From contig JAFLBZ010000016.1 in assembly GCA_017303715.1 (NCBI GenBank), positions 1-64,000 of the forward strand: a stretch of 64,000 nt of DNA. Reading direction: 5' to 3'. Source of the stretch: Rhodothermia bacterium. Its GTDB lineage: Bacteria > Bacteroidota > Rhodothermia > Rhodothermales > UBA2364. Shown here in pieces: positions 210-59,935 of this stretch (the first letter of the stretch is position 1; every line of letters starts with the position of its first letter). The notes beneath the pieces are model-generated. The model made no database searches, had not been told where the DNA came from, and saw nothing but the letters and a program-made list of their open reading frames with translations. Both the position numbers and the translations under genes were made by a program.

Positions 210-281
<72 letters not shown>

Positions 282-291
282 TTAAACGATG

Positions 292-364
292 AGCGGAAGA
301 CGGGATTCGAACCCGCGACATTCAGCTTGGAAGGCTGACGCTCTACCAACTGAGCTACTTCCGC
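292..364 (-). tRNA. tRNA-Gly (anticodon TCC)
   Basis: Minus-strand cloverleaf with a perfect 7-bp acceptor stem (GCGGAAG/CTTCCGC), D arm AGCTCAGTTGGTAGAGC, anticodon stem TCAGC/GCTGA around loop CTTCCAA (anticodon TCC) and T arm GGGTTCGAATCCC. CCA is not encoded. Third tRNA of the four-tRNA cluster. Confidence 0.96.
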
Positions 365-399
365 TTAATAACAACTGTTTAAATGCACTATTGTGCAGG

Positions 400-481
400 T
401 GGGCGGAGAAGGATTCGAACCTCCGAAAGCTTAGCTAGCAGATTTACAGTCTGCCCCCGTTGGCCACTTGGGTATCCGCCC
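400..481 (-). tRNA. tRNA-Tyr (anticodon GTA)
   Basis: An 82-nt class II tRNA on the minus strand with the long variable arm expected for Tyr. The acceptor stem is GGGCGGA/TCCGCCC. The anticodon loop CTGTAAA gives GTA. The T arm contains GGTTCGAATCC. Second in the cluster. Confidence 0.96.
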
Positions 482-511
482 TAATAAAAAGAACACCTTT
501 ATATTGAGGTG

Positions 512-584
512 AGCTGGCAATCGGACTCGAACCGATGACCTGCTGATTACAAATCAGCTGCTCTACCAACTGAGCTATGCCAGC
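512..584 (-). tRNA. tRNA-Thr (anticodon TGT)
   Basis: Minus-strand cloverleaf with acceptor stem GCTGGCA/TGCCAGC, D arm AGCTCAGTTGGTAGAGC, anticodon stem GCTGA/TCAGC around TTTGTAA (anticodon TGT) and T arm CGGTTCGAGTCCG. First gene of the tRNA-tuf unit, immediately after its promoter. Confidence 0.96.
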
Positions 585-41161: not shown

Positions 41162-41700
41162 AATTAATCCCATGCTTCAGTGTGGGGTTGTTTGCGACGG
41201 ATAACACCTTCGGCTGTAGCCATGATAAGCACAGTTCCAGCGAGGTCACATCTTCATAGAAATCCGTTTCCAAGTCACGATCCAGACCCGTAGGGGGGAC
41301 ATCTTCATAGAAAAACGTCATCAAACGCACGGCATACACGTTGGGGATCGTTCAGGGCTAAAGCCCAATGCTATTCGGGGCCTACTACTCTGCCCTAAAG
41401 GACGGGTTTAATATCACATTATGCGTAATTCTTGCTTGATGCCTCCGCCCTAACCGACGACGCTATTGTGGCATTTAGCTTTGTTTTTGCTTGCTTTACG
41501 TCTCTATTTAGAATAGCGGAGTTGTCATAATGTTTATTAACCACATGCTTCAGCGTGGGGTTTTGTGAAACGGCCACCACTTTCGATTTTAGCCATGACG
41601 AAGCACAGCGGGGCGGCATCTTCCTACGTCGAGGAATAACTGACTGTGCATAGCTGAATACCACGGCCTCTCCGCCCTGAAGGACGGCGGTGCGGTAATG
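41162..41700 (+). repeat. Modular hairpin-rich repeat, locus 1
   Basis: No real gene in this 800-bp gap. Modules in order: R1 (hairpin around 'CATGCTTCAGTGTGGGG', then GGATAACACCTTCGGCT and a TAGCCATGA end), two copies of the R2 unit ('ACCCGTAGGGGGGACATCTT', then CATAGAAA), R3 (41329-41411, with GTTCAGGGCTAAAGCCC and GCCCTAAAGGACGG), R4 ('GCTTGCTTTACGTCTCTATT'), a second R1 from about 41539 and a worn R2. Frames inside give peptides such as 'NPTLKHG' that recur at every locus and reflect the repeat, not protein conservation. Confidence 0.75.
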
Positions 41701-46579: not shown

Positions 46580-47310
46580 ATCTCCGCCCTGAAGGATGGA
46601 TTTAACATAGCTTTAGGTATTTTTTTTGCGTGATTTACGGCGCTATTCAGGCGGACGGCCTTATGTTGGCTTTCTGTCTCTTTGCTGTTGTGCGACATAG
46701 CCACATGCTCCCCAACTTAAAATTAACCCCATGCTTCAGCGTGGGGTTGCGTGGAACGGATAACACGTTCGGCTTTAACCATGACGAAGCAAAGCCGCAT
46801 CGGGGGACATCTTCATAGAAATTCGCTCCAAGGCACAATCCAGCCCCGTAGGGGGGACATCTTCATAGAAAAACGGCATCAAACGCAAAGCCCAGCCCCG
46901 TAGGGGTGGCATCTTCGTAGAAAGCCGTCATCAAACGCAAAGCCCAGCCCCGTAGGGGTGGCATCTTCGTAGAAAGCCGTCATCAAACGCAAAGCCCAGC
47001 CCCGTAGGGGGGACATCTTCGTAGAAAGCCGTCATCAAACGACGGCATACACGTTGGGGATCGTTCAGGGCTAAAGCCCAATCTTATTCGGGGCCTACTA
47101 CTCCGCCCTAAAGGACGGAGTTATTGTCTTGCTTACTTTCCGGCTCTGTGATGATCGGCGAGCCTTTTTGTTTTTGGTGCTCATATCTCCGCCTGCTTTA
47201 CGGCTCTACTCAGCGGGGCGGCGTTGCCAAATGCTTTCCGGCATCATAATAACCCCATGCTTCAACGTGAGGTTGCGTGGAACGGATAACACGTCCGGCT
47301 TTAGCCATGA
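46580..47310 (+). repeat. Modular hairpin-rich repeat, locus 2
   Basis: The longest copy of the family, filling most of a 0.93-kb gene-free gap. Order: R3 end ('CTCCGCCCTGAAGGATGG'), R4, R1 with a perfect-looking hairpin (46725-46748, AACCCCATGC-TTCA-GCGTGGGGTT), an R2 tandem array (about 46800-47041), R3 (47042-47124, nearly identical to locus 1), R4 ('GCTTTACGGCTCTACTCAG') and a second R1 (47251-47310). No reading frame spans it. Same orientation as loci 1 and 3. Confidence 0.8.
46841..47041 (+). repeat. 52-bp tandem repeat array (R2), nearly four copies
   Basis: Units start at 46841, 46893, 46945 and 46997 (the last is cut at 45 bp). Each begins CAGCCCCGTAGGGG, a small hairpin, continues with G(G/A)CATCTTC(G/A)TAGAAA and ends CATCAAACGCAAAGCC. 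Units differ at only a few positions, implying recent expansion. A worn fifth unit precedes them at about 46800-46840. There are no unique spacers. Confidence 0.92.
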
Positions 47311-59347: not shown

Positions 59348-59552
59348 CGTATGTTCCTTTTTTTCCACATACTCGTGCTGCTGTGCGCTTAGGCGAAAAG
59401 ATTATTGTTCAGGTGGTGGGAAGAGCTTGGCTTCGACTACGCCCAGCCAACTACCGGGCCTCTAAAATATGCAGGGGTTATATAAAAGCCGTTCTACAGA
59501 AAAATTAAGCGATAATACTTTTTACACAACCCCGACATAACAATTAAAATCC
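59348..59552. other. Intergenic, no gene seen
   Basis: No frame or RNA gene is recognised between the TSUP gene and repeat locus 3. A weak likeness to worn repeat material begins near 59440. Confidence 0.35.
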
Positions 59553-59935
59553 TTTTCCAACGCACGGCATACACGCTGGCATCGTTCAGGGCTAAAGCCC
59601 CTTTTGCTATAGGTTGTTCTCACCTCCGGCCTAAAGGACGAAGTTAATATTTTGCTTCACTTTTCATCTCTGGCAAGCTATTGCTTTTGGGTTGCGCTCA
59701 CCCTCGCCCTAAAGGACGGAGATAATGTAGCATTTGGCTTTCTTTTTACTTGCTTTACGTCTCTATTCAGACGAACCGTGTTACCAGATGCTTTCTGGCA
59801 TTATAGTAACCGTGGGGTTTCGTGCAATGGCTCCCACCTTCGGCTTTAGCCATGACGAATCACGCCCCAGCCTCGAAGGAGTGGCATCATAATAAAAACC
59901 CGTTCCCAACGCACGGCATACACGCTGTGTGATCG
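59553..59935 (+). repeat. Modular hairpin-rich repeat, locus 3
   Basis: More diverged copy of the family: R3 ('CACGGCATACACGCTGG', GTTCAGGGCTAAAGCCC, GCCTAAAGGACG), a second R3 end ('CGCCCTAAAGGACGGAG'), R4 ('CTTGCTTTACGTCTCTATTC'), R1 with the left hairpin arm and loop deleted (AACC directly joined to GTGGGGTT), one worn R2 ('CCCCAGCCTCGAAGGAGTGG') and the start of a new R3 at about 59912. Same orientation as loci 1 and 2. Confidence 0.75.

What the first reader, a model, noticed from the sequence alone, without database searches (positions are those of the whole stretch)
46580..47310. Modular repeat family with conserved cyclic order and several small hairpins
At three loci the modules R1 (CATGCTTCAGCGTGGGG hairpin), R2 (CCCCGTAGGGG hairpin), R3 (GGGCTAAAGCCC and CCGCCCTAAAGGACGG hairpins) and R4 follow the same order, and the loci are cut at different points of the R1-R2-R3-R4 cycle. 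That suggests growth by rolling or unequal copying of a roughly 0.35-kb unit. The hairpins resemble REP elements mobilised in trans by RAYT/IS200-type transposases, but the multi-module organisation is more complex than a simple REP or BIME. No transposase is in the window.
Basis: partly seen in the sequence, partly recalled or inferred. Interest (0 to 1): 0.6.

Follow-up and report, generated by a model that had tools for sequence, protein, structure and literature searches.

The report
Hairpin arrays of a single-strand transposase
A bacterial genome carries about forty intergenic arrays built from the same small hairpin modules in a fixed cyclic order, and the same kinds of modules surround a little-studied single-strand DNA transposase gene in other Bacteroidota, so the arrays are most likely transposase-less relatives of that element.

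Summary
Module profiles find 404 copies in about 41 intergenic arrays. The order R1>R2(n)>R3a>R3b(n)>(R4)>R1 is nearly deterministic (R1>R2 42/44, R3a>R3b 57/58, R4>R1 39/40), orientation within an array is nearly always uniform, and arrays start and stop at different points of the cycle. Amplification is species-specific: the R2 core occurs 80 times here (reversed control 1), against 0 and 4 in two congeners. R2 and R3a match, in opposite orientations, hairpin units flanking TnpA_Y1 'subclass 1.2' genes across Bacteroidota (247 units in 62 kb beside the genes, 19 in 242 kb farther away; layout IIFF-tnpA-IIFF). R2-class stems covary across species while loop and tail stay fixed. In two other genomes a subclass-1.2-like gene adjoins an R3a-R3b series; one shows the R1-R1b-tnpA-R3a-R3b-R1 cycle. 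The window's genome has one such gene, on another contig, beside a sister repeat type. Subclass 1.2 was published as lacking REP-like repeats. Best reading: tnpA-less composite arrays of this system, spread in trans and expanded locally; transposase action is inferred. Not a canonical GTAG-foot REP/RAYT pair.

The parts
46583..47310 (+). Array B (the finding): R3b 46583-46605, R1+R1b 46724-46788, R2 x5 46799-47041, R3a 47042-47091, R3b 47102-47140, R4 47194-47247, R1+R1b 47250-47310; between two convergent genes
   Evidence: module profiles, sequence, gene context
41165..41602 (+). Array A: R1, R2 x2, R3a, R3b x2, R4, R1; a further R3b-like hairpin at about 41673
   Evidence: module profiles, sequence
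59564..59914 (+). Array C: R3a, R3b x2, R4, R1, R2; between two convergent genes
   Evidence: module profiles, sequence
46843..47041 (+). Four head-to-tail R2 units, about 52 bp each: CCCC-GTA-GGGG hairpin plus tail (T/G)G(G/A)CATCTTC(G/A)TAGAAA; the forward (F) unit of the system
   Evidence: tandem spacing 52 bp; foreign tnpA-flank profile hits R2 on the same strand; stem covariation across species
47042..47091 (-). R3a: an inverted (I) unit, GGGC-TTTA-GCCCTGAACGAT when read on the minus strand
   Evidence: foreign tnpA-flank profile hits R3a on the opposite strand in 41 of 42 cases

Best explanation
The arrays are non-autonomous, tnpA-less composite arrays of a REP-like system that belongs to TnpA_Y1 subclass 1.2 (a one-tyrosine HUH nuclease of the IS200/IS605 superfamily). 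The complete element looks like [..I I F F] tnpA [I I F F..], where F and I are hairpin units of about 50 bp in forward and inverted orientation. In the window's genome the tnpA-less cycle is R1, R1b, R2(n) (forward) followed by R3a, R3b(n) (inverted), then R4. Shown: the cyclic order; the species-specific amplification; the sequence relationship of R2 and R3a to units beside subclass-1.2 tnpA genes elsewhere; covarying stems with fixed loop and tail for the R2 class; higher similarity within than between arrays. Inferred: TnpA reads the hairpin loop and the fixed tail on single-stranded DNA, cleaves beside hairpins and moves F..I segments in trans to intergenic sites; landed segments lengthen and shorten by unequal recombination or slippage, which keeps the cycle but leaves arrays cut at different points; recombination between arrays then rearranges the chromosome.
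For: Near-deterministic order and uniform orientation. 80 R2 cores against a control of 1, and 0 and 4 in congeners. R2-type motif beside subclass-1.2 tnpA genes of named Bacteroidota: 126 in 91 kb near, 2 in 241 kb far; looser unit 247 in 62 kb against 19 in 242 kb, nearest upstream unit F in 51/54 and nearest downstream unit I in 39/45 loci. A profile made only from those foreign flanks hits R2 on the same strand 112 times and R3a on the opposite strand 41/42 times. Stem covariation. Own tnpA flanked by 53-bp units of the same plan, dispersed in 19 copies, one followed by sequence resembling the start of tnpA (L272). Two loci reached through the R3b pattern alone hold a tnpA-like gene with R3a-R3b directly downstream; in G296 with the whole R1-R1b-tnpA-R3a-R3b cycle. 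All nine sampled genomes with four or more R3b-type copies have a subclass-1.2 match, 175/394 overall.
Against: No cleavage, binding or transposition data. The only Y1 gene found now in this genome sits beside a sister repeat type, not beside R1-R4, so the enzyme that moved these arrays may be lost or hidden in assembly gaps. R1, R3b and R4 are tied to tnpA by two loci only, and few of 115 tnpA loci show such hairpins nearby. G060 has 11 R2-type cores and no TnpA match. No empty site was found; array flanks are not collinear in the congeners.
Confidence: 0.62

Rival explanations
1. The arrays descend from an old tnpA locus but are now a passive satellite: tandem growth by slippage and unequal crossing-over, dispersal by ectopic recombination and rearrangement, with no transposase acting on them.
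For: Within-array similarity exceeds between-array similarity; all eight arrays tested sit at junctions not collinear with G002; no cognate tnpA for R1-R4 found in the genome.
Against: About 41 dispersed intergenic sites with mostly unrelated flanks are hard to reach by recombination alone; short arrays with few modules also occur at separate sites; amplification is confined to one species of the genus.
Confidence: 0.25
2. Canonical REP/BIME elements mobilised by an ordinary RAYT (TnpA_REP, groups 1-5).
For: Intergenic hairpin repeats in high copy, mostly facing gene 3' ends, GTAG present in the unit.
Against: The only Y1 gene has Y---Q--HH and scores above the IS200/IS605 cut-off and below the REP-associated transposase cut-off; no GT[AG]G at the hairpin foot.
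Confidence: 0.05
3. The hairpins are RNA elements (terminators, mRNA stabilisers or a structured non-coding RNA) kept for function.
For: Arrays lie between convergent genes in 15 of 34 fully flanked cases and face gene 3' ends on 51 of 76 sides; the R2-class stem covaries across species.
Against: No Rfam family; no compensatory changes in R1, R1b, R3a or R3b stems within the genome; short stems, strongly variable copy number, absent from congeners.
Confidence: 0.05
4. Assembly artefact or contamination.
For: Several contigs end inside arrays (C25, C37, C39, C45, C46, C50, C51).
Against: Most arrays are internal to contigs with genes on both sides; genome rated 100% complete with 0.01% contamination.
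Confidence: 0.02

Closest known systems
TnpA_Y1 subclass 1.2 (Quentin et al. 2018, PMC6006769)
   Same: The gene in this genome and its 80 relatives carry the Y---Q--HH signature (72 of 80), length about 154 aa, Bacteroidota distribution.
   Different: The paper gives 'no' for REP sequences and says generally without IS200 terminal structures; here hairpin units flank many members on both sides and are amplified elsewhere. Many members here have DHTH instead of the published DH[IV]H (54 of 80).
REP/BIME/REPIN with RAYT (TnpA_REP); REPtrons
   Same: Hairpin repeats around a single-copy Y1 gene, with copies dispersed in intergenic DNA, inverted units, and loops such as TTTA that matter in one tested REP system (PMC8266576).
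   Different: No GT[AG]G foot; enzyme of class 1, not class 2; five module types in a strict cyclic order and arrays up to 1.5 kb.
IS200/IS605 insertion sequences and their miniature derivatives
   Same: Protein family (NF033573 above cut-off; PDB 2f4f and 2xm3 matches), hairpins close to both gene ends.
   Different: Single tnpA copy, many hairpins per side, inverted with respect to each other, no unique left and right end found.
TIRtrons/TIRYT (PMC3733652)
   Same: Y1 transposase gene between inverted repeats whose copies form repeat families.
   Different: Described for other Y1 groups; no composite cyclic arrays reported in the passages read.

Membership tests
TnpA_Y1 subclass 1.2 (gene on C61) | Y motif Y---Q--HH | tested here: met
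   YIMSQPEHH in the C61 protein
TnpA_Y1 subclass 1.2 (gene on C61) | HuH motif DH[IV]H | tested here: not met
   DHTH instead; the same in 54 of 80 relatives, of which 8 have DHIH and 6 DHVH
TnpA_Y1 subclass 1.2 (gene on C61) | short protein of about 148 aa, WQ motif, low genomic copy number | tested here: met
   154 aa, SWQDGYG, one copy
TnpA_Y1 subclass 1.2 (gene on C61) | placement in the subclass by phylogeny or the authors' own profiles | not tested
   assignment rests on motifs; the authors' profiles were not available
REP/BIME mobilised by RAYT (TnpA_REP) | GT[AG]G tetranucleotide at the 5' foot of the hairpin | tested here: not met
   GTA lies in the loop and GTAG in the 3' tail
REP/BIME mobilised by RAYT (TnpA_REP) | class-2 transposase with Y---NP | tested here: not met
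   Y---Q--HH; REP_Tyr_transpos model 32.4 bits against a cut-off of 80
REP/BIME mobilised by RAYT (TnpA_REP) | intergenic, high copy number, hairpin-forming | tested here: met
   hairpin supported by covariation for the R2 class
IS200/IS605 insertion sequence | TnpA of the IS200/IS605 family | tested here: met
   NF033573 75.3 bits, cut-off 55
IS200/IS605 insertion sequence | several near-identical complete copies with defined left and right ends | tested here: not met
   a single tnpA copy in the genome; no downstream hairpin beside it
IS200/IS605-like single-strand transposition | strand-specific cleavage at hairpins by TnpA | not testable with these tools
   needs a biochemical assay

The most novel reading that the evidence does not exclude
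TnpA_Y1 subclass 1.2 runs its own, undescribed repeat system: composite arrays of alternating hairpin units are both its cis sites and its product. tnpA sits at the forward/inverted junction, and the whole cycle, with or without tnpA, is copied through a circular or rolling single-strand intermediate, giving arrays with a fixed cyclic order and arbitrary ends.
Probability: 0.3. Interest if true: 0.78.

Novelty: new variant of a known kind. Interest (0 to 1): 0.62.

Why it matters
Subclass 1.2 of the Y1 HUH proteins was described in 2018 as related to IS200 but without IS properties and without repeats, so its role was open. A recurrent, covarying hairpin unit placed at a short, regular distance on both sides of the gene, and amplified elsewhere in some genomes, gives it candidate substrates and makes the question testable with a few oligonucleotides and a purified protein. 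The arrays also sit at non-collinear chromosome junctions in all eight cases tested, so they may shape gene order in these bacteria, and they break draft assemblies.

Tried and rejected
Rfam scan: only tRNAs, no known RNA family. A GC-skew and gene-strand test of array orientation against replication direction was inconclusive, because skew is weak and inconsistent between segments; neighbouring arrays on a contig agree in orientation in 10 of 13 pairs, only p=0.046. Covariation inside the genome for R1, R1b, R3a and R3b: none above shuffles. Empty sites in congeners: not obtained, because the flanking genes of the arrays are not adjacent there. A search of open papers for the unit sequences gave only unrelated hits; a search for IS200, Bacteroidetes, palindromic repeats and hairpins gave the two BMC Genomics papers and general work. 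Subscription literature was not searchable. Array ends at module edges were considered as evidence for a cut site but not used, because the profile boundaries are themselves module edges. TTTA/TAAA hairpins beside tnpA in general: present in a few loci only. No structure was predicted; the protein's family is clear from sequence.

Full report
WHAT IS THERE. Three arrays lie in intergenic regions at 41165-41602, 46583-47310 and 59564-59914. A DNA search with array B finds 117 pieces on about 30 contigs. I fetched the places and built iterated profiles of five modules seeded from array B. They give 404 modules (R2 128, R3b 112, R1 63, R3a 59, R4 42) in about 41 arrays of 73 to 1469 bp. Transitions in array orientation: R1>R2 42 of 44; R2>R2 68 and R2>R3a 42 of 113; R3a>R3b 57 of 58; R3b>R3b 45, >R4 31, >R1 14, >R3a 11; R4>R1 39 of 40. 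Orientation is the same within almost every array. Start and end modules vary.

HOW IT VARIES. R2 repeats every 51-52 bp; R3b repeats at 42, 55 or 79-80 bp. Modules of one array resemble each other more than those of other arrays (R1 0.955 vs 0.819, R3a 0.941 vs 0.797, R4 0.932 vs 0.794, R2 0.838 vs 0.768), which points to local duplication or conversion. Flanks of different arrays are mostly unrelated. Gene 3' ends face the arrays on 51 of 76 sides (p=0.004), and 15 of 34 fully flanked arrays lie between convergent genes.

WHERE IT OCCURS. Array DNA gives one 39-bp hit in one congener and none in the other, nor in the other genomes of the same order that were searched. The R2 core pattern GTAG-N7-ATCTTNNTAG occurs 80 times in this genome (reversed control 1), 11 times in G060, 6 in G159, 4 in congener G002, and at most 3 times in any other of 394 sampled genomes of the phylum. 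The R3b pattern occurs 72 times here (control 0), and 21, 10, 8, 8, 8, 5, 5 and 4 times in eight others. All nine genomes with at least four copies have a match to the subclass-1.2 TnpA, against 175 of 394 overall (Fisher p 6e-4).

THE TRANSPOSASE LINK. The genome has one Y1_Tnp gene, C61:417-881, 154 aa. It carries DHTH, WQ and YIMSQPEHH; NCBIfam puts it above the cut-off of IS200/IS605 TnpA and below that of REP-associated transposase. Y---Q--HH is the signature of TnpA_Y1 subclass 1.2, which Quentin et al. 2018 (PMC6006769) describe as mostly from Cyanobacteria and Bacteroidetes, low copy, generally without typical IS200 terminal structures, with 'no' in the REP column. Upstream of the gene lie tandem 53-bp units GGAGCGTAGCTCTGACATCATCGTAGAT, the same plan as R2 with another stem. 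Units of this type occur 19 times at about seven places; at C19 (L272) one is followed by sequence resembling the first 30 or so bases of tnpA, and on C41 forward and inverted units alternate in blocks.

Eighty relatives from named genomes (nearly all Bacteroidota) served as a test set. The motif 'GC-rich 4-bp stem, 3-5-nt loop, ATCTTNNTAG within 24 nt', taken from R2 and seen again in the first flanks I read, occurs 126 times in 91 kb within 600 nt of the genes and twice in 241 kb more than 1.2 kb away. With a looser unit, 247 lie within 400 nt (62 kb) and 19 in 242 kb far away. The nearest upstream unit is forward in 51 of 54 loci and the nearest downstream unit inverted in 39 of 45, at median distances of 33 and 19 nt, and blocks alternate outward: IIFF-tnpA-IIFF (p 3e-12 and 5e-7). 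Units are commoner beside the DHTH branch than beside other branches.

A profile built only from those foreign flank units, run on the arrays of the window's genome, hits R2 on the same strand 112 times and R3a on the opposite strand 41 of 42 times. So R2 is the forward unit and R3a the inverted unit, in the same order as around tnpA. R1, R3b and R4 are hardly found this way. For R1 and R3b the evidence is two loci reached through the R3b pattern without using tnpA. In G181 an R3a-R3b series (GGGCTAAAGCCC ... CTCCGTCCTAAAGGACGGAGTTATTG) starts directly after a tnpA-like reading frame with the HH....EEY C-terminal motif. In G296 the order is TTAAC-hairpin (R1 class), GGCTTTAGCC (R1b), a tnpA-like gene (this copy looks frameshifted), GGGCTAAAGCCC (R3a), CACGTCATAAATGACGTGGTTA (R3b class), R1, R1b, R3a and so on. 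The stems differ from the window's; order, loops and some flanking letters agree. Such hairpins were not common beside tnpA in a wider sample of 115 loci, so this link rests on few loci.

HAIRPINS. For 51 R2-class units from many genomes, chosen without any condition on the stem, the four stem pairs are 93.6% paired (shuffled 61.6%), with 54 both-side changes (shuffled 17) and covariation score 0.753 (shuffled 0.209; 0/500), while GTA and ATCTT..TAG are fixed. Choosing on GTA and ATCTT..TAG makes those columns invariant by construction; the stem columns were free. Within the genome the R1, R1b, R3a and R3b stems show no compensatory changes, as expected of decaying copies.

REARRANGEMENT. The two congeners are collinear with each other through the regions homologous to the window's array flanks, but none of eight arrays tested (three in the window, three on C38, two on C14) has both flanks adjacent in G002. 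Among non-array gene junctions in the same stretches about 17 of 22 are kept (hand count from the match tables; two of the five breaks may be contig ends). Fisher p is 2e-4. In some cases one flank gene has no match at all, so this shows non-collinearity, not a mechanism.

MECHANISM. Inferred from the known chemistry of Y1 HUH enzymes (IS608, ISDra2, TnpA_REP; PMC8266576), which read loops or irregularities of single-strand hairpins and choose cleavage sites through a guide tetranucleotide. In one Marinomonas REP system the wild-type loop is TTTA and loop and GTAG changes were tested for their effect on cleavage, which parallels the TTTA and GTA loops here, but that is a resemblance, not a test. 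I propose trans-mobilisation of F..I segments followed by local tandem expansion. Local expansion and recombination alone, seeded from an old tnpA locus, is the main rival.

LIMITS. No cleavage data, no empty site, no second strain. The enzyme now in the genome has a different sister repeat type. The literature search covered open-access papers only.

Noticed in passing
window about 59478-59535; also beside arrays in L032, L033, L036, L045, L051 and in L273: A separate element of about 57 bp with inverted ends, GGGTTGTGTAAAAAG ... AATAAGCGATAACACTTTTTGCACAACC, sits next to several arrays.
   Followed up: partly
L275 (C4), L276 (C1), L277 (C9), L054:5433 (C14): A dispersed element with two R2-like units between conserved left and right flanks of roughly 150 bp each; its left flank also borders the array in L059 and its right flank the array in L042.
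   Followed up: partly
G291 and G310 (L329-L333): R3b-type hairpins occur as inverted pairs about 185 bp apart, like REPIN doublets, in two genomes of another family.
   Followed up: no
L262 (G060 C3:173.7-174.4 kb): A composite array of forward and inverted R2-type units with a period of about 317 bp, two copies, in a genome where no subclass-1.2 TnpA was matched.
   Followed up: partly
L046 (C61) and L270 (C41): The tnpA of this genome lies between its hairpin units and a fragment resembling the end of a formylglycine-generating-enzyme-type gene, followed by a large multidomain GTPase-like gene; a similar fragment borders the repeat array on C41 (read by eye).
   Followed up: no
L047 (C2:229.3 kb and 231.5 kb): Two arrays with 97.5% identical left flanks over 240 bp, a segmental duplication that includes array DNA.
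   Followed up: no
ends of contigs C25, C37, C39, C45, C46, C50, C51: Contigs end in or close to arrays, so the arrays limit this assembly and their true lengths and number are underestimated.
   Followed up: no
window 210-584: Four tRNA genes on the minus strand.
   Followed up: no
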